Shown here: positions 1,190-56,838 of the stretch, piece after piece
Layout: each line of letters opens with the position of its first letter
How positions within the stretch are numbered: the first letter of the stretch is position 1
NCBI RefSeq assembly: GCF_024323335.1
Contig: NC_066584.1
Span: forward strand, 234,934,994-234,998,993
Direction of reading: 5' to 3'
Length of the DNA stretch: 64,000 bases
DNA from: Lathyrus oleraceus
Taxonomy: Eukaryota; Streptophyta; Magnoliopsida; Fabales; Fabaceae
Translations under genes and position numbers: made by a program
Notes under the pieces: model-generated
The model's database searches: none
Seen by the model: only the letters and a program-made list of their open reading frames with translations
Told to the model about the DNA's origin: nothing

Positions 1190-1205
1190 CCGTCGAGTAT
1201 GACAG
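1190..1205 (+). other. AGTA-loop hairpin, Ogre A 5' LTR
   Basis: The left arm CCGTCG is followed by loop AGTA and right arm TGACAG, a slightly decayed stem with one wobble and one mismatch. The 3' LTR copy (23641-23656) is better paired. It lies about 200 bp before the LTR end and just before a conserved stretch, gtgctaatacc. Confidence 0.6.
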
Positions 1206-1391
1206 ATGCGTAGGGGTGCTAATACCTTCCCTTCGCGTAACCGACTCCCGATCCCATCTTTCTCTGGTCGCGGGACCATGTTATTTCCAGGTTTACTTCG
1301 AGCGTTTCCTTTCCCTCCTTTGGGATAAATAACGCACGGTGGCGGCTCTGTTGTTTTGTTTTCCCGCCGTTTTTTCGCGTAATGCGGCAGC

Positions 1392-1409
1392 TGGCGACTC
1401 TGCTGGGGA
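1392..1409 (+). other. Primer binding site of Ogre A
   Basis: TGGCGACTCTGCTGGGGA lies 2 bp after the 5' LTR end. Its reverse complement ends in CCA, as expected for a tRNA 3' end. Ogre elements are reported to use tRNA-Arg. The same 18-mer marks elements D (28393-28410) and C (38644-38661). Confidence 0.92.
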
Positions 1410-2201
1410 TAATTAAGAGAAGTTGACCTCTTGCTGGTCCATCTTCCCTAAGCGAGTCTCTCCTAGCGCTCTCTAGGATAGGGTTTGGTTGCTTTTGCTG
1501 TTTCATTTATTGCATTCATTTTGTTTATTGTTTGCATTTATGTTTGCATTTATGTTTGCATTCATCATATATTCATTTGTGCTGGCTGTGCTGTGTTTGT
1601 CTCTCTGTTGGGGTGGGAGCTACATGAGGTAAAAGGCCCAATACCCAGGCTATGAGTGAAATCTAGGACACCTAGGAATAGAGTGATTCTTGGGAAGCGG
1701 GTGGTATTGCGCCACTTAGCGGAACTTGGTATCACGAGCAGTTCAGACTCTGATGGGGTATTATCGTTACATACTTCGGGTGTGTATATGATGATATTCT
1801 ATGAAAGGATTATTTATGCTGCGTTTCTCTCGACCTTACCCTGGCCTAGATGACACCCGTGATTGGGGAGGGAATGATCACTATTACAGGTACCGTTGGT
1901 GACTGGTTGGTGACTCTTGGGTCCTGTTGGTGACTTGGTTCTACATATTGGGTCTCAGATGATTTTTTGGGTCTCAGATGATTTTTGGGTCCGAATTCAA
2001 GCCGAAGCTTTGATCCTGTGCTCCGAGATACACAGCCAGCCAGTCGTGTTTGCATCATTTGCATCATAGCATGTTTATTTTCAAAAAAAAATAATGCATA
2101 AAAAAATGAAAAAAAAGTGAAAAAAGAGAAAAGAAAAAAAAGTTAATCTCTTCATGCATATCATTTCTCAGGTTCATTCAGGAGTCTATTCATTGTGAGA
2201 G
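1410..2201 (+). other. Ogre A 5' untranslated leader
   Basis: This is about 790 bp between the PBS and ORF1 with no convincing coding frame. It includes duplicated short strings (tgggtctcagatgattttt twice near 1960-1990) and an A-rich tract at 2083-2143. I see nothing else. Confidence 0.6.
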
Positions 2202-7541: not shown

Positions 7542-7786
7542 TTTTCTTTTGTTTTTCATTTTGCACAAAACCCTACGTTCTGCCCAAGGCGTAGTGGTTC
7601 ATTGTAGGGCCTCATCATGTTTTTCAATGATATCATTAATAAAGGACGTTTTGCAAACAATTTTGTGATCCCTGTCTTTCTGTTTTTTTTTTCATTTTTT
7701 TTCAAAAAAAAATAAAAATGGCAATGTTTTTGTTTTTTGTGACTTTCTTGAACTCTTTTTTCTAAAACAAAGCATTAAACATGCAG
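7538..7786 (+). other. Putative intron between gag-pro and pol of Ogre A
   Basis: A GT donor (7538, GTAATTTTC) overlaps the gag-pro stop codon. An AG acceptor (atgcag, ending 7786) follows a pyrimidine-rich tract. Removing the 249 bp joins ...QTE to IDLTD... and runs in frame into the Met at 7824 of pol. Ogre is known for an intron at this place that allows a Gag-Pro-Pol fusion. Element C has the same donor (34199 on the minus strand). Confidence 0.7.
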
Positions 7787-7823
7787 AATCGATCTTACGG
7801 ACTCCACTACGAACATTTCTGTT

Positions 7824-10800
7824 ATGGCTCAGTATGATTTCAATAATCCCATCTACCAAGCTGAAGAGGAGAGTGAGGAAGACTGTGAACTCCCTAAAGA
7901 ACTGGTCAGATTGTTGAAGCAAGAGGAAAGGGTCATCCAACCTCATCAGGAGGAGTTGGAGATTATTAACCTGGGTACTGAGGATGCCAGAAAAGATATT
8001 AAGATCGGGGCTGCTTTGAAAGAAGATGTCAAGAGAAGGTTGATTGAGATGTTGAGAGAATATGTGGAGATATTCGCCTGGTCGTATCAAGATATGCCTG
8101 GGTTGGATACCGATATTGTGGTACATAGGCTACCTCTCAGAGAATATTGCCCTTCAGTCAAGCAGAAGCTTCGGAGAACTAGTCCTGATATGGCTGTTAA
8201 GATTAAGGAAGAGGTTCAGAAGCAGTTGGATGCGGGTTTTCTGTCAGTTACGACTTATCCCCCGTGGGTGGCCAACATCGTGCCCGTGCCGAAGAAGGAT
8301 GGCAAAGTCAGGATGTACGTCGATTATCGGGATTTGAATAGAGCGAGTCCGAAAGATGACTTCCCATTACCTCACATTGATGTATTGGTTGATAATACTG
8401 CTCAATCCTCGGTTTTCTCTTTCATGGATGGATTTTCTGGATATAATCAGATTAAGATGGCGCCAGAGGACATGGAAAAGACGACATTCATTACACCTTG
8501 GGGCATGTTCTGCTATAAGGTGATGCCATTTGGGCTGAAGAATGCCGGTGCTACCTATCAGAGGGCTATGACGACTCTCTTTCATGACATGATGCACAAA
8601 GAGATTGAAGTGTACGTGGATGATATGATTGCGAAGTCGCAGACAGAAGAGGAGCACCTGGTCAATTTGCAGAAGTTGTTTGAAAGGTTGAGAAAATTCA
8701 AACTGAGGCTGAATCCAAACAAGTGTAGGTTTGGGGTGAGATCCGGGAAGCTGTTAGGCTTCATTGTCAGTGAGAAAGGGATTGAGGTTGATCCAGCAAA
8801 ACTCAAAGCTATACAGAAGATGTCTGAACCGAAAACAGAAAAGCAGGTTTGTGGGTTTTTAGGGAGATTGAACTACATTGCAAGGTTTGTATCTCACCTA
8901 ACTGCCACGTGTGAACCAATATTCAAATTGCTCAGAAAGAATCAAGCAATCAGGTGGAATGATGACTGTCAGAAAGCTTTTGACAAGATAAAAGAGTATT
9001 TACAGAAACCTCCAATCCTTATACCTCCAGTTCCTGGGAGACCGCTGATAATGTACCTGTCAGTGACTGAGAACTCGATGGGGTGTGTATTGGGACAGCA
9101 TGACGAGTCTGGTCGAAAAGAGCATGCCATATACTACCTTAGCAAAAAGTTTACCGACTGTGAAATCAAATATTCACAGCTTGAGAAAACTTGTTGTGCT
9201 TTGGCCTGGGCTGCTCGCCGACTGAGGCAGTATATGTTGAACCATACTACCTTATTGATTTCTAAGATGGATCCAGTGAAATACATCTTTGAGAAGCCGG
9301 CTCTCACTGGACGTGTTGCCCGGTGGCAGATGATCTTAACAGAATATGATATTCAGTACACGTCGCAGAAGGCCATCAAAGGTAGTATTCTGTCTGATTA
9401 CCTTGCCGAGCAACCAATCAATGATTATCAGCCGATGATGTTTGAATTCCCTGATGAAGACATCATGTATCTGAAGATGAAAGATTGTGAAGAGCCTCTT
9501 GTCGAGGAAGGACCGGATCCTGATGACAAGTGGACCTTGATGTTTGATGGGGCGGTGAATGTGACTGGCAATGGTGTTAGGGCAGTGCTTATCAACCCTA
9601 AAGGTGCTCATATACCTTTTTCTGCCAGACTGACTTTTGACGTGACCAACAATGAAGCTGAGTATGAGGCTTGCATCATGGGTATAGAAGAAGCCATTGA
9701 TTTGAGGATCAAAACTCTGGACATCTATGGAGATTCCGCTCTAGTGATTAACCAGGTCAATGGAGATTGGAATACTAATCAGCCGCATTTGATTCCTTAT
9801 AGAGATTACACCAGAAGAATACTGACGTTCTTCAAGAAGGTGAAGTTGTATCACGTTCCCCGGGATGAGAATCAGATGGCTGATGCCTTGGCTACTTTGT
9901 CTTCTATGATTAAAGTTCATTGGTGGAATCATGTGCCACATGTCGCGGTAAATCGACTCGAGAGGCCTGCGTATGTGTTTGCAGCCGAGTCTGTTGTTGA
10001 TGAGAAACCGTGGTACTATGATATCAAGAACTTCCTCAAGAGCCAGGAGTATCCTGAAGGTGCGTCAAAGAATGACAAGAAAACCCTGAGAAGGCTAGCT
10101 GGAAGCTTTTATTTGAATCAAGATGATGTGCTGTACAAGAGGAACTTTGACATGGTTCTGCTCAGATGCGTGGATAGACACGAAGCAGACATGTTGATGC
10201 AGGAAGTGCATGAAGGATCTTTTGGTACCCATGCTGGTGGTCATGCAATGTCCAAGAAATTGTTGAGAGCCGGTTATTACTGGATGACTATGGAATCCGA
10301 TTGTTTCAAGTACGCTCGGAAGTGCCATAAATGTCAGATCTATGCTGATAAGGTGCATGTACCACCAAGCCCTCTGAATGTCATGAATTCGCCTTGGCCG
10401 TTCGCGATGTGGGGCATTGACATGATTGGGAAGATTGAGCCCACTGCTTCTAATGGACATCGCTTAATTCTGGTTGCGATTGATTACTTCACCAAGTGGG
10501 TGGAAGAAGCTTCCTATGCTAATGTTACCAAACAAGTGGTTGCCCGGTTCATCAAGAAGGAAATCATCTGTCGTTATGGGGTTCCTGAGAGAATCATTAC
10601 TGATAATGGTTCGAATCTCAATAACAAGATGATGAAAGAGCTTTGTAGAGATTTCAAGATTGAACATCACAATTCTTCTCCTTACAAACCGAAGATGAAT
10701 GGTGCTGTAGAGGCGGCAAACAAGAATATTAAGAAGATTGTGCAGAAAATGGCCGTGACGTACAAGGATTGGCATGAGATGCTGCCTTTCGCTTTGCATG

Positions 10801-11261
10801 GGTACCGTACCTCAGTACGTACGTCGACCGGGGCAACCCCTTACTCCCTCGTGTATGGTATGGAAGCGGTCCTACCTGTTGAAGTGGAGATTCCTTCTCT
10901 GAGAGTCTTGTTGGATGTCAAGCTTGACGAAGCCGAGTGGATTCGAACAAGGTTTAATGAGTTGAGCCTTATCGAAGAGAGACGTTTAGCAGCTGTGTGC
11001 CATGGGCAGTTGTATCAGAGAAGGATGAAGAGAGTCTTTGATCAGAAAGTGCGTCCTCGAAGCTATCAAATCGGTGATCTAGTTTTGAAGAGGATCCTTC
11101 CTCCCGGTATAGATAACAGGGGCAAGTGGACTCCTAATTATGAAGGTCCATACGTTGTTAAGAAGGTTTTCTCCGGTGGAGCCTTGATGCTTACAACTAT
11201 GGATGGTGAAGATTTTCTGTCCCCTGTTAACTCAGATGTAGTCAAAAAATACTTCGCATAA
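7824..11261 (+). CDS. Ogre A Pol: reverse transcriptase, two RNase H domains, integrase
   Basis: The 1145-residue frame is open throughout. RT spans about residues 110-340, with VDYRDLNRASPKDDFPLP and the active-site YVDD near residue 263. A first RNase H-like domain follows (about 405-520) but reads YLSVTENSMGC where active Ty3 enzymes have an Asp-containing TDAS-type motif, so it is probably catalytically dead. A second, archaeal-type RNase H (about 568-700) keeps the acidic residues in FDGAVN, NNEAEYEA, GDSALV and DENQMADAL. Integrase has a zinc-binding H-H-C-C (about 795-835), the D,D,E core (WGIDMIG, TDNGS, GAVEAANK), and a GPY-like C-terminus. A dual RNase H is a Tat-lineage trait. Expression would use the putative intron 7538-7786. 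Because gag-pro upstream is broken, this copy could only act in trans. Confidence 0.93.
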   Translation: MAQYDFNNPIYQAEEESEEDCELPKELVRLLKQEERVIQPHQEELEIINLGTEDARKDIKIGAALKEDVKRRLIEMLREYVEIFAWSYQDMPGLDTDIVVHRLPLREYCPSVKQKLRRTSPDMAVKIKEEVQKQLDAGFLSVTTYPPWVANIVPVPKKDGKVRMYVDYRDLNRASPKDDFPLPHIDVLVDNTAQSSVFSFMDGFSGYNQIKMAPEDMEKTTFITPWGMFCYKVMPFGLKNAGATYQRAMTTLFHDMMHKEIEVYVDDMIAKSQTEEEHLVNLQKLFERLRKFKLRLNPNKCRFGVRSGKLLGFIVSEKGIEVDPAKLKAIQKMSEPKTEKQVCGFLGRLNYIARFVSHLTATCEPIFKLLRKNQAIRWNDDCQKAFDKIKEYLQKPPILIPPVPGRPLIMYLSVTENSMGCVLGQHDESGRKEHAIYYLSKKFTDCEIKYSQLEKTCCALAWAARRLRQYMLNHTTLLISKMDPVKYIFEKPALTGRVARWQMILTEYDIQYTSQKAIKGSILSDYLAEQPINDYQPMMFEFPDEDIMYLKMKDCEEPLVEEGPDPDDKWTLMFDGAVNVTGNGVRAVLINPKGAHIPFSARLTFDVTNNEAEYEACIMGIEEAIDLRIKTLDIYGDSALVINQVNGDWNTNQPHLIPYRDYTRRILTFFKKVKLYHVPRDENQMADALATLSSMIKVHWWNHVPHVAVNRLERPAYVFAAESVVDEKPWYYDIKNFLKSQEYPEGASKNDKKTLRRLAGSFYLNQDDVLYKRNFDMVLLRCVDRHEADMLMQEVHEGSFGTHAGGHAMSKKLLRAGYYWMTMESDCFKYARKCHKCQIYADKVHVPPSPLNVMNSPWPFAMWGIDMIGKIEPTASNGHRLILVAIDYFTKWVEEASYANVTKQVVARFIKKEIICRYGVPERIITDNGSNLNNKMMKELCRDFKIEHHNSSPYKPKMNGAVEAANKNIKKIVQKMAVTYKDWHEMLPFALHGYRTSVRTSTGATPYSLVYGMEAVLPVEVEIPSLRVLLDVKLDEAEWIRTRFNELSLIEERRLAAVCHGQLYQRRMKRVFDQKVRPRSYQIGDLVLKRILPPGIDNRGKWTPNYEGPYVVKKVFSGGALMLTTMDGEDFLSPVNSDVVKKYFA

Positions 11262-12897: not shown

Positions 12898-15800
12898 TGT
12901 AACACCTCAAATTTGCACCCATCATTGTACATACATTTTCATATTAGGTCATAGCATATCATGGTCCACTGCATAGCATTGCATTGTCCCATTTGCCTCA
13001 AGTGCAAGCCAATCAAGAAATTAGGTCAAACTGGTCAGGAGATCAGTCAACCAAGCAAGCAAGTGAGTTTTTCATTGAGCCAGGGCCCTAGGGTTGGTCC
13101 AACATGTTCACATGACTTGGGGATCCATTTGAAGTGTTTTGGTCAAGGATTGGATGTTCAGAAGTCATCAGTCAATGCACAGTTTGTCAGAAACCCTAAA
13201 AAGTCAAACTTGGTCAACTGTGGTTGATTTTATGGTTTTGATGGATGGATTTGGTTTGAGAGAGCTTGTTCATGTCCAAATAGGCCTCATATATCATGTC
13301 AAACACCATCATGGAAGAATTTGAAGCCAGATCAGAAATTTCCAAAAATGGAAACTGGACCTGTAACTGAAACTTACCAAAAATGGAAAGTCTTGATCCT
13401 CAAACTTACATCATGATACAAGCTTCAAATGAATTTTTGCCCAACATGAAAGTTGAAGATCTTGTTCTCCCATTTCCAAAAAGTCCAAGAACTCTCAATT
13501 CCCATGTATGGTTGGCAAGTTATGATCGAATCGTTTTCAAAAATTCTTGAACTTCAAAAGGCCATATCTCTCAAACCATTTGGCCAATTTGGGTGGGGTT
13601 TTTTCCTACAAGTCACATTTGACCTCCTCTTTCCAAAAATGTAACTTGCATTCACCAAAACTTCACCAATCAAAATGGCATTTTTGGACTTGCATGAATT
13701 GATTTTAAGTGAGGTGAAAAAGTGAAGTTTTAAATTAACCATTTCTAATCAATTCTACCAATAAAACATGTTCTGAAATGTCATTTGAAACTTGTTGCAA
13801 GCTCATTTTTATGCAGTACACATAGCCATCACCTACTTGCTTGAAATTTGGCCAAAAGTACACTTTTACCAACTCCTTTCCATATTTTCATGAACCATGA
13901 TTTGTACTCTTAAACAGAGTATTTAAACATCATTTTCTGTCATCTTACAAACCCTAGCAGCTGCCTCCATAACACAAAAATATCATTCTCTCAAGATTTG
14001 CATTTTTCTCATTTTTGCATTTTTTGCTCAAACCTCCAAAGGGCTCGAGTTTGGCTTGGTTTTATCATCACATTCCATCACTTTGGAAGCTGTTTGGAGC
14101 CCTGAATCTCGACTGTAACAGCATTTGCATGAACTGGTTTTCCAAGCTCCAACAATGGCAGGTTTCGATTTGTTGTGTTTCAAGCATCATTGAGCCAAAA
14201 CAATTTCACCATTCAACTCTAGGAAGCTGATAGAGCATCTGTTTCAAGCAATCTTGGCCAGAAAACCGTGGAAATATCACTGCCCTTCAAGATCAGGTAA
14301 AATCCGACCTTAACCATTCTTAAAATTGTGTGATTCATCTTGTAGATCTTTTGCTTGTGAGTATCGTGAGCTTTGAGTCAAGTAGAATCGTGCCAAAATG
14401 AGAGAGAACGAGGGTTTTGAAGTTTCTTGTTCATGTATAGATTTGATCGATTCTTGGTGTTGTTGTTATTTTTAAACAAATCGCATATTGATTCGTGTTA
14501 AGTAATGGTGGATCTTCATGAATGTGTGAATAATTTTTAATTCTGGAACTATTTGAATTTCCTGGAAATTTCGTGCATGAAGATCATGAGGATCTTCATG
14601 CTGTTCATGAAACTGCCTTTTTTCCTGCGGATTTAGCCGCAGCCTTCATATGGGGTTGCTGCGACATTACCTGCGAAAACATATGAGTTTCCTGCGGATT
14701 TCGCGTGTTAGGGTTTTGCATGAACCGTTCCTTGTTTCATTCATACTGACCAATAGGAACATTCCGTTCCAGCGTCCAAAACGGTAGCGTTTGGTTTAGT
14801 GAACCCCATATTTACAAATATGCCATTCCCGGTTTTTATTTCATTTAAATCATTTAATTGTTTCAATTTTTATTTCACTTGGCATGGCTCACTTGCAAAA
14901 ATCATAACTTATTCATTTCAAATCCAATTTTCATGGGAATTTTTGTGTTGTGTTCATCACAATCTCTAGTTTTTTATCATGATTTTTCCAGATTTTTTTG
15001 ATGAGTGGATTTTAATTGGTATTAGGGTTTGTGACATGTATGCATATTTTGTACACTTTGCCAAAACATTTGTGAAATGATGATGCTTTATCCAATGGCT
15101 CCCAAATTTTTTGTGCTTAAACTAGACACACTCATGGTGATTTTGGTGTAGAGTTTGTGAATTTATCATTGCTGGTTCGTGAGTTATGATTTTTTGAACT
15201 AGGGTGTGACAATTTGTGTCACACCATTGATGTCCAACTTAATGATTTTTGATACCATGCTTCTTGACCTCCAATTGATCTGATTTTTTTGCATGAACCT
15301 ACTCTTGTATGTCTAGTTTACATGTGAATTTTCTTGGAATCATTTATGGCATTTCCTAATTGTTTGAGATTTTCTCCCCTGTTTAGTCATATGTTGACTT
15401 TTGGTGACACATGTTCCCATTTCATTTGTGAAATTCTCATACTTTATTAGATGATCATGAAATTTTACATGTGCATACTAGACATCCTCATCTTTGCCAT
15501 GGTTTTAGTCCCATTCATTTATCATACACCATCTCTGATTTATGATTTTTCTAAGTTGATGCTTGTTTGGTTGACTTCATTGAGCATGTTCAAAATTGCT
15601 TTGAATTTCTGATTTTCATTGACTGCCTTCCACTTGTCCAAATGTGATGAAATTTGACATGCTTACCATGCTGTGGGTTGTGATTGGTCATGATTTATTT
15701 GGTGATTTTTGGAAATGTTTAAGATTGCTTTTGAGTTAAGTCTTGCTGTTGACTTCTATGAGCTTCTAAATGCCATGCCTTGACCTAAACTGTTCATGAA

Positions 15801-17821
15801 ATGATGATGATGATTGATATGAATTTGAACCCAATTGGTTGTGTTTCTTAATTGTTTGAACATGACTTTGGATGCTTGCCCTTTGCTGTTTTGACTTTTT
15901 CATTCCCTTTTGACCCTAGGCTTGTCCTAGTGGTTCTGTTACTCACCTTTGAGCTCATGTTTTCAGGTTGACCAACAAATGACCAATGAGATCAATACAA
16001 ATTGATTGAGTGTGCTTGTTTATCATTACTAACCTATTTGTTTTGTAGGTTGCTTGGCTCACATGCCTTAGGCCTTGTGCCTTGCACATTCATTTGCTTC
16101 TGACTGACTGTTGACTTCTGCTTCCTTTTGCTTTGTTTGAGGTTGTATACTAATGTCTGCTTGACTATTTCAGGTGCTTTTAGTTGCTTAGTTCCTTGTG
16201 AACTTTTGCTTTGCTTTGCTTGTATAAGCAATTTGCATTGAGGTATATTTCTAATCTTCATGTAGTCTGGAAGACCTGGCCTGTTACTTGGCCAGGCAAC
16301 TGTCTGAAGTCCTCCTTAAGAGGCAATGTTTGTGGATGTTTATTTTTGTCCTTGTACAGAGTCAAAGTCCTCCTAAGTGAAGAGGCAATTGGCAGAACCC
16401 AAGGGATATGCAACCTATCCCCTGCTATTCAGTGTGTCATCTGTTTTGCTCACACCACTGTGTTGATGCATTGCAGATACAAACCCAAGATCTTGTACAA
16501 TTGTACAGTTGAGTCAGTATCAAATGTGTAGAAGGGTTCCCACTTTCTGAACCCACACATTCTTGTCTTAAGCTCTCCCAGGCCAGGGATAAGAGCTGCG
16601 AAGTCTTATCTTCACTCACCTTTCATCTGCTTCACCTTAGCCCCTCAATGGCAAGGTTAAGAGCACATTCACCCAGTTCCAGAGGTTTGTTTGTTGAGGT
16701 TGATATGACCCCTCGACTAAAACCTAACCCTTGTGTGAGCCCTTGCTTGTGTATAGTGTGTGCTATCTGTGCTTGTATGTTTGTTCGACTTGCTTCCTGT
16801 GCAAGTTAGGGTTAGTTTAGACTTGCTTCCTGTGCAAGTTAGGTTTTGCTTGGCTTGCTTCCTGTGCAAGTTAAGTGTGTGTGTGGCTTGCTTCCTGTGC
16901 AAGTCATGACTAGGATAGGCTGGCTCCCTGTGCCAGTTAGCTAGAAACCTTAACTTAGGGATGATTTGCATGATAACATCTAGGCTCGAGTCGTAGTCTC
17001 CCTAGTTGTGTCTCCCTCTGTTATCTGGTTAGGCTAGTCCTTTATCCCTCCGTAGGGGAACTACGTCGCCCTGATCCTCATACCAGATGAGGTACGTAGG
17101 CAGGAGATGAGCTGATCTCTCCGGGCGCCTGTGTCTTTGTTTTGTCTTGTTGTGTGCTTGGAAGCTGATGTAAGTCCATCGAGTGGCATTTGGGTTCCAG
17201 TGTGCGTGTGTTTGGTTCGGATGCTGATGTAAGTCCAGTGATTGGCATTTGGGCTCCATGTTTGCCTTCTTGAGTGCGTTTTGGTTCGGATGCTGATGTA
17301 AGTCCAGTGATTGGCATTCAGGCTCCACGTTTGCCTTTGCCTGTGTTTGTTTGTGTGCGTGTTAGCCGAGCTACGAATGCTCTGATTCTCCTTCGTCCAA
17401 GGAGATACGTATGCATAGGATGCGATATCCTAGCGAGCATGTGTCGTTTCCCCAGTCCGAACTACTTCGACTCTGATGTCTATGCCTGATAGACTAAGTA
17501 GGCCCAGGATACGATGTCCTGCCGAGTCAGTTTCAGTCAGTTTCTTTTGTCTCTTTCAACCAGTGTGTGTGTGTGTGAGCAGTGTTTAGCAACCATTTTC
17601 CTTTCTTATTGTGCGTGGATCCCGTCGAGTACGACGGATGCGTAGGGGTGCTAATACCTTCCCTTCGCATAACCGACTCCCGAACCCATTCTCTTTGGTC
17701 GCGAGACCATGTCTTTTCCAGGTTTACTCTGAGCGTTTCCTTTCCCTCTTTTGGGATAAATAACGCACGGTGGCGGCTCTGTTGTTCTTCTTTTCCCGCC
17801 GGTTTTTCGCGTAATGCGACA
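12898..17821 (+). mobile_element. Solo LTR B, Ogre-like, 4.9 kb, inserted in Ogre A
   Basis: It starts TGTAACACCTCAAATTTGC and ends GCGACA, flanked by a 5-bp duplication (atatg). It resembles the 3' LTR of A along its length (A starts TGTAGCACCTCAAGTTTGC) but is clearly diverged, so it is a related family rather than a partner LTR of A. No PBS, coding region or second LTR belongs to it. That fits recombination between the two LTRs of a full insertion. Inside are the three CTACG...CGTAGG modules (17061-17127, 17371-17438, 17462-17526), the AGTA hairpin (17622-17637), a PBS-like string (17771-17783), and a weak TATA-like gtatttaaac near 13918. Confidence 0.93.
17622..17637 (+). other. AGTA-loop hairpin, solo LTR B
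   Basis: CCGTCG - AGTA - CGACGG, a perfect 6-bp stem, with the same position and flanks as in A, C, D and G. Confidence 0.7.
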
Positions 17822-17826
17822 ATATG
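17822..17826 (+). repeat. Target-site duplication of solo LTR B, right (atatg)
   Basis: Matches 12893-12897. Deleting B plus one copy rejoins the 3' UTR of Ogre A. Confidence 0.9.
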
Positions 17827-18774: not shown

Positions 18775-19145
18775 GGTGTCGATAAACGTCGAGCTTCTCC
18801 CGTTCGTCCGTTGACGTCTGGTCGAGTCTTTCCCAGTCATTCGTTAATGTCTGGTCACCTCTTCATTGGTGTCGATAAACGTCAAGCTTCTCCCGTTCGT
18901 CCGTTGACGTCTGGTCGAGTCTTTCCCAGTCATTCGTTAATGTCTGGTCACCTCTCCGTTGGTGTCGATAAACCTCTAGCTTCTCCCGTTTGTCCGTTGA
19001 CGTCTGGTCGAGTCTTTCCCAGTCATTCGTTAATGTCTGGTCACCTCTCCGTTGGTGTCGATAAACGTCGAGCTTCTCCCGTTCATCCATTGACGTCTGG
19101 TCGAGTCTGCCCATTCATCCGTTGATGTCTGGCCACCTCTCCGTT
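18775..19145 (+). repeat. 93-bp tandem repeat in Ogre A 3' UTR
   Basis: The string ggtgtcgataaac begins at 18775, 18868, 18961 and 19054 (exactly 93 bp apart) and again at 19145 (91 bp). More diverged copies precede it back to about 18270. As 93 is divisible by 3, an apparent 135-codon frame (18718-19125) runs through the array. I treat it as non-coding. Confidence 0.9.
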
Positions 19146-19385
19146 GGTGTCGATAAACGTTGAGTTTTTCCCATTCGTCCTTTGACGTCTGGCTGTATCT
19201 TTCCTTTGATAAAAATCAAAATCCCCAGTAGAGTCGTCGGTAAACGTCCGGTTTGGTTACTGTTGCAAGCATCCTGTTCATATCCCGAAGAGTGCAAATT
19301 TCTACGGTTCTTCGGTATTCAATCCCTGTTTACCTTGAAGGTCTGACAGCCGTTGCTATCATCCATTCAGGTTCCCAGTTGATTG

Positions 19386-22300: not shown

Positions 22301-23840
22301 TGAGGTATAATTTCCCTGACTTCATGTAGTCTGGAAGACCTGTCCTGTTATGTGGGCAGGCACCTGTCTGAAGCCCTCCTTAAGAGGCAATGCTTGTGTT
22401 TGTTTATCTTTGTGCCAAGCAGGTAAAGACCTCTTAAGAGGCAATTGGCAGATAAAAGGGATGTGCAATCCATCCCCTGCTATTCAGTTGTGTCATTCAC
22501 CCTGCTCACATCATTGTGTTGATGCATTGTGGATAATAGCCCAAGATCTTTGTTGTGTCAGTCATCTGTGGAGAAGAGTTCCTACATTCTGAACTCTCAC
22601 ACTTTCATTTGTCTGAAGCTCTCCCAGGCCAGGGATAGGAGCTGTGAGGTCTTACCCTCACTTCCCATTTCATCTGCTTCACCCTAACTCTCAATGTTAG
22701 GGTTAAGAGCTAACCACACCCGATTCCAGTTGGCTTGTGTTTCATAGCCTAACCTTGTATGAGCCCCATTGTTTGCATATAGTGTGTGTGCTTGCTTTTT
22801 GTGCTTGTATGTGTTTGCCTGTGCTGTTTAGGATAGCTTGCTTCCTGTGCAAGTTAGATAGAAACCTTAACATAGGGATCGTATGCATGATAACTTCTAG
22901 GCTCGAGTCGTAGTCTCCCTAGTAGTTTGTGTCTCCCTTTGTATCTGGTTAGGTTAGAAGTTTTTTCCCTGTTAAGGGGAACTACGTCGCCCTGATCCTC
23001 ATACCAGATGAGGTACGTAGGCAGGAGATGAGCTGATCTCTCCGGGCGCCCTTTTTCTTTTTCAACCCCTTTGTGTGTGTTTGGAGTCTGACGTAAGTCC
23101 AGCGATTGGCAGTCGGTTTCCTGTGTCTTGTTTGCTTGTTGGAGTCTGACGTAAGTCCAGCGATTGGCAGTTGGTTTCCTGTGTCTTGTTTGCTTGTTGG
23201 AGTCTGACGTAAGTCCAGCGATTGGCAGTTGGTTTCCTGTGTGTGTTTGTTGGTTAGGAGTCTGATGTAAGTCCAGCGATTGGGATTCGGTTTCCATGTT
23301 TGCCTGTTTGTGTTGGAGTCTGACGTAAGTCCAGCGATTGGCAGTCGGTTTCCTGTTTGTGTTGTGTTTTGTTTGGCGTGCATTAGCCGAGCTACGAGTG
23401 CTCTGCTTCTTCCTCCAGTCAAAGAAGATACGTATGCATAGGATGCGACATCCTAGCGAGCACGTTTTCCCTTGTCCCGAACTACATCGACTCTGATGTC
23501 TGTGCCTGACAGACTACGTAGGCCCAGGATGCGATATCCTACCGAGTTAGTTTCTTTTGTCTTTCTGTGTCTCCTTCCAGCCTTGTGCGGTGTTTGAGCA
23601 GTTTTTAGCAACCTTTCTTCTATTCTTTTGTGCGTGGATCCCGTCGAGTACGACAGATGCGTAGGGGTGCTAATACCTTCCCTTCGCGTAACCGACTCCC
23701 GATCCCATCTTTCTCTGGTCGGGAGACCATGTTCTTTCCAGGTATACTTCGAGCATTTCCTTTCCCTCCTTTGGGATAAATAACGCACGGTGGCGGCTCT
23801 GTTGTTTTGTTTTCCCGCCGGTTTTTCGCGTAATGCGGCA
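19398..23840 (+). repeat. 3' LTR of Ogre A (4443 bp, complete)
   Basis: It starts TGTAGCACCTCAAG and ends TAATGCGGCA. Its last 1476 bp match the partial 5' LTR at 1-1389, including five 58-bp repeats. Structured modules lie at 22982-23050, 23392-23462 and 23482-23546, the AGTA hairpin at 23641-23656 and a PBS-like string at 23791-23803. No coding region. Confidence 0.95.
23641..23656 (+). other. AGTA-loop hairpin, Ogre A 3' LTR
   Basis: CCGTCG - AGTA - CGACAG: five of six pairs form, with one mismatch at the stem base. Confidence 0.65.
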
Positions 23841-28392: not shown

Positions 28393-28410
28393 TCCCCAGC
28401 AGAGTCGCCA
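28393..28410 (-). other. Primer binding site of element D
   Basis: On the minus strand it reads TGGCGACTCTGCTGGGGA, 3 bp after the 5' LTR end (...GTGCGACA). It is identical to the PBS of A and C. Confidence 0.92.
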
Positions 28411-28561: not shown

Positions 28562-28577
28562 CCGTTGTACTCAACGG
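28562..28577 (-). other. AGTA-loop hairpin, LTR of D
   Basis: On the minus strand: CCGTTG - AGTA - CAACGG, a perfect 6-bp stem. It differs from B and C at a paired position (T-A instead of C-G or A-T). Confidence 0.7.
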
Positions 28578-29060
28578 GAACCTTTTAGTCTGATTTTGCT
28601 ATTTGACTGTTAATTGACTGTTATTTGCTTGCTTCGAGTGATTAGAATTGATGATAGATGTGGATGAAGACCTCAGGAGGGGGAAATGGGAGGTTTTTTA
28701 TTAGTGTGCTCACGAAGATACAACAATCTCCTGCCTACGTATCCTTATGGTGCAATAAGGAAATCAGAGCATTCGTAGTTCGGGCTACTACGAATATTTG
28801 GTGGGTTTTGTTTTGATGAACGACTGTGTAGGTCGGCGTTCTAACGGCTAAACGCTGGCTTGTCTACTCTCGGTGGAGGCTCTAGCACTGGTTTGTTGTG
28901 CGCATTAGAAAGGATTGACAGTGTTCTTTTGAAATGGTTTTGGTCACGCGGGGATGACAAGTTGATTTGATGTGTTTGGGTGTTTTGGTTTGGTTTCGAT
29001 CGCGCGGGGCGAGAAGTTAGGTTTAATGTTGGAGATGTATTTGGAGAACGACGAAAGATT

Positions 29061-38643: not shown

Positions 38644-38661
38644 TCCCCAGCAGAGTCGCCA
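38644..38661 (-). other. Primer binding site of element C
   Basis: On the minus strand it reads TGGCGACTCTGCTGGGGA, 2 bp after the LTR end ...GGATGTGACA. Confidence 0.92.
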
Positions 38662-38871
38662 GCTGTCACATCCTGAAAAATGGAATGCAAAAAATAACAA
38701 CCGGCGAAGAAAGACAGGAGAGTCGCCACTGTGCGTTATTTATCCCAAAGGAGGGAAAGGAAACGCTCGAAGTAAACCTGGAAAAAGGAAAGGACAAGAC
38801 AAGGTCTCGCAACCAAATCTTGGGTTCGGGAGTCGATTATGCGAAGGGAAGGTATTAGCACCCCTACGCAT

Positions 38872-38887
38872 CCGTAGTACTCTACGG
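38872..38887 (-). other. AGTA-loop hairpin, LTR of C
   Basis: On the minus strand: CCGTAG - AGTA - CTACGG, a perfect stem. It differs from B by a compensatory C-G to A-T change. Confidence 0.7.
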
Positions 38888-40145
38888 GATCCACTTTTGT
38901 AGTTCTTGTCTAAAGGGTGTGGGTTTATCTAATGTGTTATTTACTAAAAAAAGGGGTCAAAAGAAAATGACTCGCACGGATGTCGCATCCACTGCATACG
39001 TATCTCATATGAATATGAGAATCATAGTCTTCGTAGCTCGGCTACCTAGGGGTTAAGGGTAATTGTGCTCGCTAAGACATCGCGTCTTATGCCTACGTAT
39101 CTCATATGGAATGAGAATCAGAGCAAGCCGTAGTTCGGCTAACTACGAGGTTATGGATTGGGTTTTGGACGAACGACGTTACTACGCAATCTACCGGATG
39201 CTCGACCTTTGGAGACTTACACGCCTGTAGTAGAAGGAGTTAACGTGTTCTTAGGAGAAGAAAAATCAATTAGTTGGTAGGGTTAGGGATGCTCATGCAA
39301 AAGGAGTCCTGGACGAAGGGACCTGTAAAAAAAAATAAACACACAAAAACATTGCCTCCTATCGAGGTCTTCCAGCTAGGAAAGCAGTAAAATGCGGGAA
39401 AATGTAAAAGGTACCACGCGGATAAAGATCCGAAGTAACAGCAATTAGAGGGATGGGAAACCCAGGGATCCTTCCAAGCTAAACACCATCAAAGAAAGCG
39501 AGTCAGTACAGGTAATCGGAATAAACCTCCAGGTGGTATCCCACAAATAAAGTGGAACACCAGGCAAGCTATCCCTGCAAGAGTATGTGAGCCCTCACAA
39601 AAACTCAACAAAAGGGTTAGTGAAACACGATAAGCATTTTTTTCATGGATAACAGTATGGTTTCAGAAACCTCAAACCCTGTGGCATACACTTCAGAAAT
39701 TAAACGATTAAGCATTCAAGGCATTATTTATACATTCATACATAATTATGAACCCGCGGGAAAAAACCTAATGAAATTCATCCATCATACCTCAAACATT
39801 CAGAGTATTCAACTTCAAAGCACAAAGGTAATGGGAATAAGGGCAAACCTGATTGGAGAGATCGGTTGAAATCAAATGGCACGGCTGGATTTGCAAACCA
39901 ATGTTAGGGTTTGCTTGAGCTGAAAGTGTGTGAGTCAGAATGAACCTTTCAGAGTTGCCTAGAGGTTGTTGCAGATTAATTCTCACTCTCTCTGTTTAGG
40001 TTTCTCTCCAGGTTTTGTCCAGGGTTTTGTTCCAAGGAAACCTCAGAGTGTTTTGTTTCTCTTCCTTTTTCTGTTTGTTCTCCCTCTTTTATAACCCGAT
40101 TTTCATGGCTTTGTGGGCTCAAATGAGAGAGGTCCAAGTCCAAGA

Positions 40146-45776: not shown

Positions 45777-45790
45777 ACTCTCCCCCACTA
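45777..45790 (-). other. Polypurine tract of F
   Basis: On the minus strand: tagtgggggagagt, directly before the 3' LTR. Confidence 0.85.
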
Positions 45791-45818
45791 AAAGAGTTTT
45801 CATCCTCGAAAACATACC

Positions 45819-50189: not shown

Positions 50190-50298
50190 CTCTATTCTGA
50201 AAACCCAACAAGCTAAAACAATAAGTACTGATAGGGTTACACAACACCTATCCCGTACAGGGGAAACAGAATAATTACGACTCGACTCGACCGACTAT

Positions 50299-50310
50299 GC
50301 TCTGATACCA
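50299..50310 (-). other. Primer binding site of F
   Basis: On the minus strand: TGGTATCAGAGC, 4 bp after the 5' LTR. It is complementary to the 3' end of plant initiator tRNA-Met. Confidence 0.93.
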
Positions 50311-50314
50311 CTAA

Positions 50315-52331
50315 TGTAACACCCTTCTAAAATACCCCAATAATTAATTAAATCAACAAAATATAAATCAGAGTAAGTATGCAATTAAGGGTGTCACACT
50401 TGACACTTCACACAATGTTCCAAAATATCTGGTCATACTCAATTATTTATCAAAATAAAACATTGCACAATACGCAGCGGATAGAGATCTATCAATCATG
50501 CAAACCATGTAACACATTACATGTAAGATCATTCAACAACCAACAATGAAAATAAGGTAAAACATCCCGTCCCGATGTTACATCTACCAGAGCATGACCC
50601 ACTAAGGAACTACACTAGACTCCAAGTACTAGCTTCTACTCAATCACTGCTCGTTACCTGAAAAATAGTTGTAAGGGTGAGTTCCTCAATCGATATAATA
50701 AGCATTATAAAATATCATGTAATGTTAAGTAAATTAACACATTTCATCACCCTAATCATAACACATATTCAGCAACGGCAATATCAACTCATAATCATCA
50801 TCATCATCATACTCAACTCAACACAACCACAAAACACACGTATAATATTGGAATACATCCATTCATATTATACGCCATACATATATTATGCAATGAGACT
50901 CCATGCATGCGGTACCGACTATTCGTGAACATATAGTTCAACCTCGCCGATCAAATCCAGATACGGCTACCAAGCTCACTAGTCCCACTCATTTGAGACC
51001 TAGTGACTCACTCACTAATTCCTCACCATGGGAATTAGCTACCACCCCAAGGGCTATGCTATGCACGCTAATCACCTAGCATGCAAACATCAACAACAAT
51101 CCAAAATAATTCACTCACTAATTCCTCACCATGGGAATTAGCTACCACCATAAAGGCCACAATATGCAAGCTAAATCACTTAGTCATGCAACATCAACAA
51201 CAATCCAAAATGGACATATGCTCACACTCTAAGCCATAAAACAGTCCATTCCACATAATACATACATTCACAGCATTATGCATACAATCATACATCATCA
51301 GCATATTATCACAAAATCATATCATGTCATGCCAATTAATAATCACAGTATTAGCACACTCTACTAATACCTATACTGCTCAAAACAACGGGAAATGATC
51401 CCTACTATATCATACATCAGCCAAATTACATTACTCAGCTGAACAACCAAAAACTGCATAACGACAGCCCAGAAAAATCACAAATCTGCCCATACGCGTA
51501 TTGCATAGTCCCATACGCGTATGGCCCATCTCCTGACCAAATCCCATACGCGTAACACCATCTCATACGCGTATGCTACGCGTACCACTTCCCCATACGC
51601 GTACCAACAGAGACCAAACCACGTTCAAAACATCATCTTCCTCATCCATACGCGTATTGCCTAGTGCCATACGCGTACCAGACCATCTCATACGCGTATT
51701 GCCTAGTGCCATACGCGTATGACCAGAAACCAGATTTCCAGATCTGCTATGGGTTTCTCTACCACGAGATTCCTCAGATCCAACCTCCCACAGTCCAATT
51801 TTACACAATAATCGTTCATATCATCTAACACGAATCATACCCTATTCGATTTCACAAATTCTAACATTATTACATCTAATTCTTACGAATTTCCTTCAAT
51901 TATAATCCAAATTTCGTTCATCCAATATTTCACCAATTTCAGCATACATCATTCCAATTAGAGTCAAATCAATGGTTTATCACTACCCATTACATGTTAT
52001 CCCATAATACCCATTAAACGATGATAAACCCCCCTTACCTGAGTTAATCCGGCGAATCTTTAAGCTTCAAGCTTTTCTCTTCTCCAACCTTCTTCCTCTT
52101 GCTCTGCCTCTTTGCCCTTTTCCTCTTTTCAACCGCTTCTCTGTTTTTCACGTAAAAACCCTTTTACCAAAAAAATGGAACTCTTTTCTTATTTCCAACT
52201 TATATACTTTCCAATAATTATTATTCCAATAATAATAATAATAATCCAATAATTCCAATTATTTAATTAAATTAATAAATATAATATTAACTTAAATTAA
52301 ATAATTATCTTATTTTTATCGGGGTGTTACA
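50315..52331 (-). repeat. 5' LTR of F (2017 bp)
   Basis: Nearly identical to 43758-45776, including the ACGCGTA cluster (51490-51721) and the TATA-like element (52199-52206 on the plus strand, TATATAAG on minus). The latter lies about 125 bp from the LTR start and is a plausible promoter. Confidence 0.96.
52199..52206 (-). promoter_or_regulatory. TATA-like box in 5' LTR of F
   Basis: TATATAAG on the minus strand, in the U3 part of the 5' LTR and upstream of the coding frame. Start site not determined. Confidence 0.5.
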
Positions 52332-52500: not shown

Positions 52501-54020
52501 TGTAAGACCCTAATTTTGGCCCTAAGATCCCTCATGATATCTCATTATTTGCATTGGCTTTGGGATCACACCTTGGCATCCATCCTCCTTACCCCTCATT
52601 CATTGGGTTTGCATTGGGAGAGGTCAAAAGCACATTTGATTATATCATAATTTGTTTTTCATTATTTACTAACCAAAATACCAAAAATATGTCTATCTAT
52701 AGCCTTGTTTATTTTGTAGGTAGTGTGTGCATCCACCAATGCCTCATCAAACTCACATCTAGGGTTTAAGACCCTCAATGCAAGGAGATCAATTAAGAGA
52801 TGGTTCAAATTGGATATAGACATCATATATGGGTCCCCATGATCTTCATTTATCATTTTGATCAAGAAATCATCAAGAGTTAGAAGCTTGTTTGCCTTTA
52901 AAGCCCCATTTCATCTGGGTATCTTGTATGAATTCCTCAACAAGTTTCTTCAACATTTGATCAAATATATTAAGGGATAATTCATTATACATCAACTTAT
53001 GCATATATGATCCTCCATAAGTCCAAAATATCAAGAGAACTTCAAGGTTTCAAGTTGGTTCATGGTGGTTGATCAGAGAAAGTCAACTAGTCAGAACTGG
53101 GGTTCACTAGACCCTATCTCCTACAATGTTTGTCATATTAAAATTATTATAAGAGAAACGTTAATCCTTATGACATTCCAAACAACTTTCATGTTTAGTT
53201 CAAGAGCTAATTTTGCTTGGAAAGTCATTTTTTATGGTGAAAGATTATAGGTCATTTTGTTTGTGCCCTAGTTAGGAGGTCAACTTCCAAGGACCATAAC
53301 TTGCTCAATTTTTATGAGATGAAGGTCATCCAAGTTTAATGATAAAATTCAATATGTCTTCTCCAAATTTTATTCTTTAAGAAACTTCAAATTCAACTTG
53401 AAAAGGCATGTGCCAAGAGGAAACATTATAGGTCATTTTGGGCCATTACCATTGAACAAGCAATTTTCCTCAACTTCTAAAATGAATAACTCCTTCATGC
53501 CAAATCCAAATGAGGTCAAATTTATGACCAAATTGAAGAGGTTTGAAAGAGCTACAATTTTTATGAAGGAACATTTTCCATTTGAAGCTTATGCCAAAAG
53601 TTATTCAAGGGGGAAGAAGTGAACATTTGACTTGGTACTTAGAATTTTTTTAATTATATTTGATTTTCCAAACTTCCACCTCAAAATTCATCATGATCCA
53701 AGCTTCAAATGGAAATGTTTTCAACATGAAAGCGGTTCCCCTTGAACTCACCTTTCAAAAATGTCTAAAATCACTTCATCTGGCCATGGTTTGAATGACT
53801 TGCGTATAGTTTTTCTTCAAGGTTCCATTTGGATGAATCTCATGACCACTTCTCATGTTCAAATGCATGGCTTCATGTTACACTTTCAACATCACTCATG
53901 ATCATATTTGGACTTTTTGACATTACTTCATGGGCCTATCATACGCCCATGCAAGCACGCAAATGGGAATTGATATTTTTGGCATTTGAACGGAAGTGTG
54001 TGGAAATCAATTGCCAAGCC

Positions 54021-54029
54021 TATAAATAC
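54021..54029 (+). promoter_or_regulatory. TATA box in LTR G
   Basis: tataaatac about 1.5 kb from the LTR start and in its plus orientation. A plausible U3 promoter. Confidence 0.5.
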
Positions 54030-56820
54030 ATTGCCTCATGCTCAGAATTATGAACACCTTGCCCAAGCTTTGCTCCTGTAACCTCCCATTCACCATTAGA
54101 GGATAAACTTGAAGGTTTTCAATTGAAAACCGAGTTTCAATTTCACTTCTATTTTGAAGTTGAAACTCTAAGAATCCAAGCCATTTGAGCTCTCAATTCA
54201 TCTCCTACAATCAAGTGGAAGCAAGCCCAAGCAAATTGAGATCCAGATCGAGCCTCATCACTGTAAATAGAAGTTCGGTGAGGTCCATCGGAGAAGATGA
54301 ACGGAGCTAGGGCTCCGGTGGTGTGCTGGTGTTTCTCAGACCATCTGATCATAGTTCCACGTTTTAATCAAGACCTTTGCTTTTGCATACCACGCGTGTA
54401 GACGCGTTGACTGAGGTGTTGAACGGAAGTACACGCTTGATCATCAGAGATGCCACCTCAATTAATGAGGGAGATTTGATGACCCTTGTTTTTTTTTAAT
54501 TTAATTTAATTTTTTGATTTTTTATTTAATCACTTTATTTTGTTTAATTCATATTAACTTCAATTCTAATCCAAAAAATATGGAACTTTCACCAAAAATC
54601 TTTAAATATTTTTCTCTTCCATATTTTGAATTAAAATTATTTTTGGATTAATTTTAATATTTTTCATGAACTAAATGTTTTCTTGCATATTTTTAACTAT
54701 TTAAAAATACTTATGACTTTCAAAAAATAGTGAAATATTTTGTCTAAGGTCCTTTGACCTTGTTTGACCTAGGATAAATCCCTTGGCCATTTATTTGGTG
54801 TTTTGAAGGAATTTTAGGTTTTGACCAAATTAAAATGTATTTTAATTCATTTTTAAATTAATTTTTAATTGATTAAATGCTTAAAAATGTTGTTGAGCCA
54901 TTTTTATGGTCTTGTGATGTTTGACTTACTGTTTGGCTCTTGGTTATGGTTGATTTGACTTTTGTTGGATCAAAACCATTGGATTTAGGGGATTGATGAA
55001 ATGTACATTTCATCTCCCAAAATGAATGGATGGTTTTTATTTGATAAAATTCCTCCCATGGTCAATTTGTGTTTCTATCTTCCCCTCCCTCTTCATCTTC
55101 ATCCCTATTCTTCCCAAATCCATCATTTGACCAATGAAATCTCTAATGTCTAAAGGCTAATTGATTCATCAATGACCTTGTGTCAGATGAATCAATACAA
55201 GTGTGACTGAGATAGGTCCCTCCCTTTTGATCTTTTTCTTTTAGTGTGTGGTATGTTTTAGGAGTTTGGTTCTTGACACCAAATATCTAACATGCATTAA
55301 CACCAAAAATTTTATTGCCCGACCTCAGATAGTTGTGACTTCTACATAAGCTCAATTATGATTGTTTAACATAGAGCTAAATTTGACCCTCAAGGCATAG
55401 CATTCTAGTAAGTGAGATTGTTAGTCTCCCATTCTTCATGGCATTATATGGAGACTTGACCTTTTTTCCTTTCATGGGAGTTAGTGGCATACTTGTTGAA
55501 TTATCCAAGTTGGAGCCCTTCTCATGGAAGATGTCTTGGTTTAAGGATTCATACTTGTGAATGAATGGTTGAGTGTTCTCCAAAGAATGACTTAATTAAT
55601 TAAAATCACCACTAACATTTGACTAACTTTTAACTAACATTTGACTAACTCTTGTTAATATTGTTTTACTTTCAAGTCATTTACTATTATGCAATTTAAA
55701 TTTTAGTCTTTTATCATTCATTTCCATTTACATTTCATATAACGTGTTTATGTTTATGTCCTTTTTCACTTTGCTCATTTGAGCCATATCTTGTGATTGT
55801 ATATATTATTTGTGTGTTTTGATTTTGTTTATGGTCTTAGGACATTAAAATACCTAATAACAACAAAAAAACCCTAAAAAACATCTGGGGGACTGTTGAA
55901 CTTGATCTGAACTTTTGGACTTAGGATTAGGCAACATGCCCTGTGCAAAAAGGACTTGGCCAATGCCAACATCTTGAGACTGAGCTATTTTGAACCGTGC
56001 CTTCATCTGATGCAAGACTTAGGAATTGTTTTAATTCATCTGCTACTCTATCTTGGTGCTTAATTGTTATTTTGATCTTGTGTCTGATGTTTTATTCTAA
56101 GTTGATCAAGGGATATTTCATCCGGTACATTGGAAGACAGTGAAGGTTGCTAGCTAATGGAGTGCTTGTTTGGATGTGGCTATATTTATTTGAGGCCTTG
56201 ATCTTCATGATGCCTGGATATTGTTCATTGCTTATTGGTCATTTCTTGATTAAAGTCCAAAGGAAAATGGGTTTCTATATGACATTCTTGTCTATTAGAT
56301 TGCATCCCATTGGTCAGATCTTTTCAACTCTTAACTTTTAAGTTTGTGCTTAGGTTAGCCTATTCATCTCCTCCCATTTCTTAAATTTCAAATCTCTCTC
56401 TCTTTTCAAATAAATTTTTTGCTTGTGATTTCAGTATTAGACATTGTTTAATGATTAGAAACTTTGGCCTTATGTCATAGAATTTTCAAACTCTTTCTTA
56501 AATCAAATTTGTAAACAAACTTAATCATATTAACTTAAAATTTCAAAAGACAAAAAGAACTAACAACTCCATTAAAACTTTTGGCCCTTTTGTGCACTTT
56601 CTTATTAAAACTTTTGTTAAAAACAATTTACCAACTTATTTGAAATTTTTACCACGAACTACGGGGTTTGATCCCTCATTTTTATGTTGGTACGTAGGCA
56701 TGAGACCGAAGGTCTTGTCAAACACAAAAATATAATCAATGAATTATTTTCTCATCCCCACACTCCATTTTTCTCAAACATCATTTATACCAAAAACACA
56801 TGCACACATAAAAAATGGCT

Positions 56821-56838
56821 TCCTAGGAGTACCTAGGA
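56821..56838 (+). other. AGTA-loop hairpin, LTR G
   Basis: TCCTAGG - AGTA - CCTAGGA, a perfect 7-bp stem with a different sequence from the other LTRs. It is followed by gggtgataacacc, which corresponds to ggtgctaatacc in A, B and C. Confidence 0.7.

What the first reader, a model, noticed from the sequence alone, without database searches (positions are those of the whole stretch)
1190..56838. Hairpin with AGTA loop and compensatory stem changes in all five Tat-type LTRs
At the same relative place, before a gtgctaatacc-like stretch in most, each LTR has a stem closed by AGTA. B (17622): CCGTCG/CGACGG. C (38872, minus): CCGTAG/CTACGG. D (28562, minus): CCGTTG/CAACGG. G (56821): TCCTAGG/CCTAGGA. 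A (23641): CCGTCG/CGACAG. One stem position is C-G, A-T or T-A in different families while the loop stays fixed. That is classic covariation, so the folded form seems to be selected. I know of no description of this element. Packaging, dimerisation, priming or 3'-end processing are possible roles.
Basis: partly seen in the sequence, partly recalled or inferred. Interest (0 to 1): 0.9.

Follow-up and report, generated by a model that had tools for sequence, protein, structure and literature searches.

The report
Folded RNA signals in pea retrotransposons
The ends of the giant jumping genes that fill the pea genome carry small folded RNA shapes that evolution has kept while their letters changed, so they probably act as signals in the element's RNA, although what they signal is not yet known.

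Summary
A 6-bp hairpin with an AGTA loop (H1) sits at the stated place in all five LTR families of the window (six copies). One stem pair is C-G, A-U, U-A or G-C.

The window lies in pea. There, 132,741 further places match an H1 pattern with three stem positions and most of the 3' arm free (backwards control 343). In the 100 listed, 292 of 300 free pairs are Watson-Crick; permuted arms reach at most 182. Of 50 LTR ends picked only by their primer binding site, 47 have the hairpin, 2 a decayed one, 1 none. The loop is not fully fixed: one group has ATAA.

Two things go beyond the finding. Directly behind H1 is a second covarying hairpin (H2) with a strongly conserved 12-13 nt loop. Upstream lie one to four copies of a covarying pseudoknot (M1). 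G.U cells far outnumber A.C cells in H2 and in one M1 helix, so there sense RNA is the folded strand.

My reading: a cis-acting domain of Tat/Ogre genomic RNA, probably for packaging or reverse transcription. The fold is well supported; the function is inferred. Ten literature searches found no description, but the one specialised Ogre paper looked up is not held.

The parts
1190..1205 (+). H1 hairpin, LTR A (5' copy); pair 2 is C.A, closing pair G.U
17622..17637 (+). H1 hairpin, LTR B
23641..23656 (+). H1 hairpin, LTR A (3' copy); pair 2 is C.A
28562..28577 (-). H1 hairpin, LTR D (no H2 behind it)
38872..38887 (-). H1 hairpin, LTR C
56821..56838 (+). H1 hairpin, LTR G (7 bp)
1206..1238 (+). 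H2 hairpin, LTR A (5' copy), loop holds gtgctaatacc
   Evidence: read; structure counted
17638..17670 (+). H2 hairpin, LTR B
23657..23689 (+). H2 hairpin, LTR A (3' copy)
38839..38871 (-). H2 hairpin, LTR C
56838..56869 (+). H2 hairpin, LTR G
526..599 (+). M1 pseudoknot, LTR A 5' copy, first
936..1013 (+). M1 pseudoknot, LTR A 5' copy, second
1026..1099 (+). M1 pseudoknot, LTR A 5' copy, third
17056..17129 (+). M1 pseudoknot, LTR B, first
17366..17441 (+). M1 pseudoknot, LTR B, second
17457..17530 (+). M1 pseudoknot, LTR B, third
22977..23050 (+). M1 pseudoknot, LTR A 3' copy, first
23387..23464 (+). M1 pseudoknot, LTR A 3' copy, second
23477..23550 (+). M1 pseudoknot, LTR A 3' copy, third
28705..28783 (-). 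M1 pseudoknot, LTR D
38967..39041 (-). M1 pseudoknot, LTR C, second
39064..39138 (-). M1 pseudoknot, LTR C, first
56654..56725 (+). M1 pseudoknot, LTR G (helix P3 weak: 2 of 6 pairs)
57207..57285 (-). M1 pseudoknot in LTR fragment F, no H1 behind it
1392..1409 (+). Primer binding site of element A, directly behind its 5' LTR
   Evidence: read
38644..38661 (-). Primer binding site of element C
   Evidence: read
28393..28410 (-). Primer binding site of element D
   Evidence: read
12898..17821 (+). Solo LTR B, flanked by the 5-bp repeat ATATG (best candidate)
7779..11261 (+). pol frame with reverse transcriptase, two RNase H domains and integrase: Tat lineage

Best explanation
Shown by comparison: LTRs of pea Tat/Ogre elements encode a folded RNA region made of M1 pseudoknots (one to four where found), a linker, hairpin H1 (AGUA or AUAA loop) and directly behind it hairpin H2 with a conserved 12-13 nt loop. 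H1 lies mostly 187-244 nt before the primer binding site and upstream of a poly(A)-signal-like motif. In H2 and M1 helix P4 the folded strand is the sense strand. Inferred: if transcription starts upstream of M1, this region is the 5' leader (and also the 3' end) of the genomic RNA, and H1-H2 is the site by which Gag or the reverse transcription complex recognises that RNA for packaging and initiation. The stems would be scaffolds that may change, the loops the contact surfaces.
For: H1: 132,741 pattern matches in pea against 343 for the backwards control; 292 of 300 free pair cells Watson-Crick in the 100 listed, permuted maximum 182. PBS-picked sample: 31 of 50 LTR ends have an AGTA hairpin of 6 bp or more, shuffles mean 0.1, maximum 1; 47 of 50 with any loop. 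H2: 95.1% of cells paired, score 0.429 against 0.228 shuffled and at most 0.211 slid; found unprompted by RNAalifold. M1: 96.4% of 1058 cells paired, score 0.465 against 0.190, slid at most 0.099. Strand: H2 51 G.U against 2 A.C cells, M1 P4 26 against 2. Place: H1 187-244 nt before the PBS in 47 of the 49 LTR ends measured. Precedent: the Ty1 RNA 5' end has a pseudoknot with hairpins needed for retrotransposition and tied to packaging (PMC5454406, passages).
Against: No transcript start or end is mapped; TATA boxes have no common position, so H1-H2 may lie in U3 and not in the leader. No binding or packaging data. H1 itself shows no G.U excess (3 C.A, 1 U.G). D has H1 without H2. 20 of 50 LTR ends show no M1 within 700 nt by the strict pattern. 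The window copies alone did not support H2.
Confidence: 0.45

Rival explanations
1. 3'-end formation: in the 3' LTR the H1-H2 pair lies upstream of the poly(A)-like motif and helps that LTR, rather than the 5' LTR, to be used for polyadenylation.
For: In the 15 of 16 fetched LTRs with an AATAAA-like motif, the first one lies 114-178 nt behind the start of H1; the motif ATAAATAA is repeated across families.
Against: The distance is shorter in D (about 75 nt, read) and varies widely; M1 lies far upstream and would need another role.
Confidence: 0.2
2. Nuclear export or stability element: the structures let unspliced genomic RNA leave the nucleus or resist decay, as the MusD and IAP transport elements do in mouse.
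For: Ogre elements are partly spliced and so need export of unspliced RNA; MusD's transport element is a pseudoknot with kissing loops (PMC12786077, passages). M1 is repeated up to four times in one LTR.
Against: No sequence or Rfam match to a known transport element; no export data.
Confidence: 0.15
3. Mutation artefact: template switching by reverse transcriptase inside an imperfect palindrome makes its arms complementary, so that pairing changes together without selection.
For: The elements replicate by reverse transcription, and the mechanism is known for quasi-palindromes (recalled).
Against: It would not keep G.U pairs, would not keep loops across families, and does not readily explain the pseudoknot helix P2, whose arms lie about 50 nt apart with hairpins between them.
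Confidence: 0.08
4. DNA-level palindrome: a transcription factor binds the two halves of H1 as a dimer.
For: Sirevirus LTRs carry repeated palindromes that were read as transcriptional elements (PMC2829016, passages). H1 contains GTAC, the core of SBP-box sites (recalled).
Against: Half-site letters at stem positions 3-5 change as long as they pair; the centre AGTA is not symmetrical; H2 tolerates G.U and not A.C.
Confidence: 0.05

Closest known systems
Ty1 5' RNA domain of yeast (pseudoknot S1/S2 with hairpins SL1a and SL3a; PMC5454406, passages)
   Same: LTR-retrotransposon RNA with a pseudoknot and hairpins; compensatory changes in a pseudoknot stem rescue retrotransposition there
   Different: In Ty1 the hairpins lie in loops L1 and L3 and the core spans 326 nt; M1 is about 75 nt, repeated, has a hairpin inside P1, and lies in the LTR. 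No sequence relation was tested.
Ty3 dimerization site (PMC11381356, passages)
   Same: Short hairpin of a Ty3-type element near the RNA 5' end
   Different: Ty3 uses a self-complementary palindrome in the loop; AGUA and AUAA are not self-complementary.
Sirevirus repeated palindromic motifs (PMC2829016, passages)
   Same: Palindromes in plant LTRs, conserved between diverged elements
   Different: Clusters upstream of a TATA box with a CGG-CCG core, read as DNA-level elements; H1 is single, near the PBS, and covaries.
Stem-loops in long R regions of retroviral LTRs (PMC3601003, passages)
   Same: Residual conservation of R linked to stem-loops
   Different: That paper holds no occurrence of Ogre or Athila, and none of Tat as a whole word.
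HDV-like ribozymes (helix order recalled)
   Same: Same order of helices as M1: P1 P2 P3 P3' P1' P4 P4' P2'
   Different: P1 short, joiner before P2' only 2-3 nt in most copies, no Rfam match.

Membership tests
Tat/Ogre lineage of Ty3-type LTR retrotransposons (the host element) | Second RNase H domain between RNase H and integrase | tested here: met
   (RT_RNaseH and RVT_3 both present, then integrase); tested for the pol frame 7779-11261 only
Tat/Ogre lineage of Ty3-type LTR retrotransposons (the host element) | Primer binding site for the lineage's tRNA directly behind the 5' LTR | tested here: inconclusive
   The same 18-mer follows LTRs A, C and D and the genome copies L149, L150, L151, L157 and L158 (first 12 letters); that the tRNA is tRNA-Arg is recalled
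Retroviral-type dimer initiation hairpin | Self-complementary loop | tested here: not met
   Loops AGTA and ATAA are not self-complementary, as the sequence shows
HDV-like ribozyme (for M1) | Helix order of the nested double pseudoknot | tested here: met
   for the helices; the HDV order is recalled
HDV-like ribozyme (for M1) | Catalytic joiner of several nt with its cytosine between P4 and P2' | tested here: not met
   Joiner is 2 nt in the 46 aligned copies; the requirement is recalled
Any of 4227 Rfam families | Match at the gathering score | tested here: not met
   0 matches in the window; at the looser threshold one match in 17300-17900, E 0.85, on the minus strand, well below its gathering score
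AGNN-tetraloop hairpins bound by yeast RNase III (recalled) | AGNN loop on a long stem | tested here: not met
   AGTA fits AGNN, but the stem has 6-7 bp and 9 of 47 hairpins have ATAA
Sirevirus repeated palindromes | Several copies per LTR with a CGG-CCG core | tested here: not met
   One H1 per LTR and stems such as CCTAGG without that core
Packaging signal | Directs genomic RNA into particles | not testable with these tools
   needs bench work

The most novel reading that the evidence does not exclude
Tat-lineage LTRs carry a so far undescribed modular RNA domain, M1 pseudoknots plus an H1-H2 double hairpin, that controls the fate of the genomic RNA, for example by protecting or cleaving it, exporting it unspliced, and handing it to Gag. 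With H1 patterns at more than 160,000 places in pea, it would be among the most abundant structured RNA families of a plant genome.
Probability: 0.3. Interest if true: 0.88.

Novelty: new variant of a known kind. Interest (0 to 1): 0.74.

Why it matters
Cis-acting RNA signals are mapped in retroviruses and in yeast Ty elements but hardly known for the Ty3-type elements that dominate large plant genomes. Here a whole structured region can be read from covariation, with helices, conserved loops and, for part of it, the strand. That makes packaging, reverse transcription initiation and RNA export of plant retrotransposons directly testable by probing and pulldown. It also gives a landmark for finding and orienting Tat LTRs and a candidate RNA family for Rfam.

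Tried and rejected
Relatives outside pea: pattern and protein scans of viral contigs and genome contigs gave no plant Tat LTR that I could recognise. L001 and L119 looked like bacterial or phage coding DNA. The 116 stretches were scanned by script: none had the PBS motif, the GTGCTAATACCTTCCC motif or the CCGTNG hairpin.

Dimerisation through the loop: unlikely, AGUA is not self-complementary. HDV-like ribozyme for M1: same helix order, core features missing. A branch-point reading of the CTAAT/CTAAC loop was dropped because the CTTAAAACC copies break it. Pairing of the H2 loop with another part of the element: in the window five complement patterns gave sites only at 15018, 26225 and 38849-38851, the last being the antisense of LTR C's own loop. 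On the six window copies alone H2 did not beat shuffles. A first P3 count was out of register and redone. MAFFT misplaced a gap in the first M1 alignment, so P2 was first counted by script on chosen arms (cells paired and score 0 of 2000, but number of pair types 336 of 2000), then on 46 copies of one length class out of 83 distinct ones. P1 varies at few pairs and says little (482 of 2000). AGTA is the commonest loop of perfect 6-bp tetraloop hairpins in the window (5, shared with its reverse complement), but only fourth in 200 kb of unselected pea sequence, behind ATAT, TATA and CCGG. Athila control by its PBS: asked from then on, never answered. TATA boxes: no common position.

Rows dropped before counts: from alignment A4 (34 segments found), L131 and L137:3636 (chance matches) and D (no H2), leaving 31; from A5 (50 LTR ends), L184 and L199 (not found by the script) and L188 (wrong hairpin found), leaving 47.
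Full report
What is there. The window is part of the pea genome: G000 has 3.8 Gb, and three of its contig lengths equal those of Lathyrus oleraceus records. It holds several LTR retrotransposons, some nested. The pol frame at 7779-11261 has reverse transcriptase, two RNase H domains and integrase and is closest to legume proteins among the named hits, so it is of Tat/Ogre type. LTR B is best read as a solo LTR of about 4.9 kb (12898-17821) with the 5-bp repeat ATATG on both sides.

The hairpin. On the six window copies 34 of 36 cells pair, three pairs change on both sides, and the score is 0.544 against 0.137 for shuffles and at most 0.067 when the partner column is slid. Family A is imperfect (C.A at pair 2). 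Folding single stretches gives H1 in the minimum-energy structure for three of six.

The genome test. The exact B hairpin occurs 34,089 times in pea, its backwards control 0 times. A pattern that leaves stem positions 3, 4 and 5 and the five outer positions of the 3' arm free, and excludes C at position 5, matches 132,741 places against 343 for the backwards control. Of the 100 places listed, 83 have a perfect 6-bp stem and 292 of the 300 cells at the three free pairs are Watson-Crick; permuting the 3' arms gives a mean of 134 and a maximum of 182. The 100 are the first on contig C1, not a random draw. Stems found with their full complement are CCGTCG, CCGTAG, CCGTTG, CCTAGG, CCATGG, CCTTAG, CCATCG and CTGTAG. 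Related families share ancestry, so these eight types, and not the copy numbers, are the nearest thing to independent events.

A sample that does not depend on the hairpin. The PBS TGGCGACTCTGCTGGGGA occurs 60,260 times, control 0. I took the first 50 listed places in order (10 loci and 40 stretches) and looked upstream. An AGTA hairpin of at least 6 bp lies 100-320 nt before the PBS in 31 of 50; shuffled regions give a mean of 0.1 and at most 1. Among all 256 tetraloops AGTA (31) and CTAA (35, inside H2) stand out; the next is ATAA (9), which is the same H1 hairpin in another group of copies. Allowing any loop, a script found a hairpin in 48 of 50. One of these (L188) was the wrong hairpin; its true copy has a broken closing pair. 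L199 has one base missing in the stem, and L184 shows none. So 47 of 50 are good, 2 decayed, 1 absent.

A second hairpin. In the 47 rows aligned from the PBS sample (35 distinct), H1 has 98.6% of cells paired and a score of 0.584 against 0.127; these rows were found by asking for at least 4 of 6 H1 pairs, so this number leans towards H1. H2 was not asked for: it has 95.1% of cells paired, 40 cells changed on both sides against 8.4, and a score of 0.429 against 0.228 for shuffles and at most 0.211 for slid partners. RNAalifold predicts both hairpins without being told. An earlier set of 31 rows gave the same picture more weakly for H2 (0.293 against 0.178). One group of copies has a perfect 10-bp H2, ATACAAAGGG/CCCTTTGTAT. 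A smaller hairpin GGTG-NTAA-YACC inside H2 is an alternative that the data do not exclude. In 200 kb of unselected pea sequence plus the window the H2 loop motif occurs 11 times, each time with a tetraloop hairpin of 5 or 6 pairs in the 40 nt before it.

The upstream pseudoknot. Thirteen matches of a CTAC...GTANGC pattern lie in the window against 0.13 expected, in the same LTRs and in fragment F. Each opens a module of about 75 nt, M1, with helices in the order P1, P2, P3, P3', P1', P4, P4', P2': a pseudoknot with two hairpins. In 46 copies of one length class, out of 83 distinct copies held, 96.4% of 1058 cells pair, 167 cells changed on both sides against 49.4, and the score is 0.465 against 0.190. 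The pseudoknot helix P2 alone gives 97.0% of 230 cells and 0.411 against 0.158, slid at most 0.141; only two of its five pairs vary on both sides in this class. Over the 83 copies the P2 arm fits its own downstream arm better than swapped ones (13.02 against at most 10.66 in 200 permutations), and an exact 5-nt complement is present in 47 of 81 copies against 74 of 1939 cross comparisons. P1 hardly varies. The strict pattern finds M1 within 700 nt of the PBS in 30 of 50 LTR ends; its start lies 144-187 nt before H1 in 25 of these and 246-273 nt in 5.

Which strand folds. On the 47 rows the listed H2 pairs hold 51 G.U and 2 A.C cells; M1 helix P4 has 26 and 2 in 25 copies, though 14 of its G.U cells are one pair. 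A sense RNA tolerates G.U; in the antisense these would be A.C. H1 and the other M1 helices show no such bias, so the strand claim rests on H2 and P4.

How it may work. Shown: the conserved fold, its place and, in part, its strand. Inferred: the role. The place, before the PBS and upstream of a poly(A)-like motif, is where leader signals of other retroelements lie. The best analogue is the Ty1 RNA 5' domain, a pseudoknot with hairpins needed for retrotransposition and tied to packaging (PMC5454406, passages). In Ty3 a palindromic hairpin serves dimerization (PMC11381356, passages), but H1 has no palindromic loop. I therefore prefer recognition by Gag or the reverse transcription complex, with 3'-end formation and RNA export as main rivals. 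A mapped transcript start is the missing fact.

Novelty. No Rfam family matches. Ten searches of the open-licence PMC library, with terms on Ogre, Tat, LTR, hairpin, stem-loop, pseudoknot, palindromes, ribozymes, packaging and the sequences themselves, showed no description in their listings. Of six papers I saw passages. One specialised Ogre paper that I asked for is not held, so a description in papers outside this library is possible.

Noticed in passing
M1 copies listed in parts, 526-57285: A repeated pseudoknot of about 75 nt with four covarying helices lies upstream of H1; it may be the larger finding of the two.
   Followed up: yes
about 17769-17781 and the same place in other LTRs: U5 holds a partial copy of the primer binding site, (GG)TGGCGACTC, about 15 nt behind the poly(A)-like motif: TGGCG[AG]CTC occurs in 46 of 50 pea LTR ends, mean 9.7 of 11 letters matched against at most 6.76 in shuffles. 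It may be a second tRNA contact or an old LTR end.
   Followed up: partly
about 17697-17712, and the matching place in LTRs A and C: A short hairpin with a GNRA-type loop, GGTC-GCGA-GACC, follows H2 in LTRs A, B and C; not tested.
   Followed up: no
43757-52331 (minus): A Ty3-type element of another kind (SH3 domain at the integrase end) with 2-kb LTRs that are 99% alike and one open frame of 1491 codons, so probably a young insertion. The only other AGTA hairpin of 6 bp in the window (47294, minus) lies inside it and looks like chance.
   Followed up: no
18094-19204: Array of diverged tandem repeats between solo LTR B and the 3' LTR of element A.
   Followed up: no
protein P0034: A record named Salmonella enterica reverse transcriptase is 67% identical to this pea pol protein; it is probably plant DNA in a bacterial assembly.
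   Followed up: no
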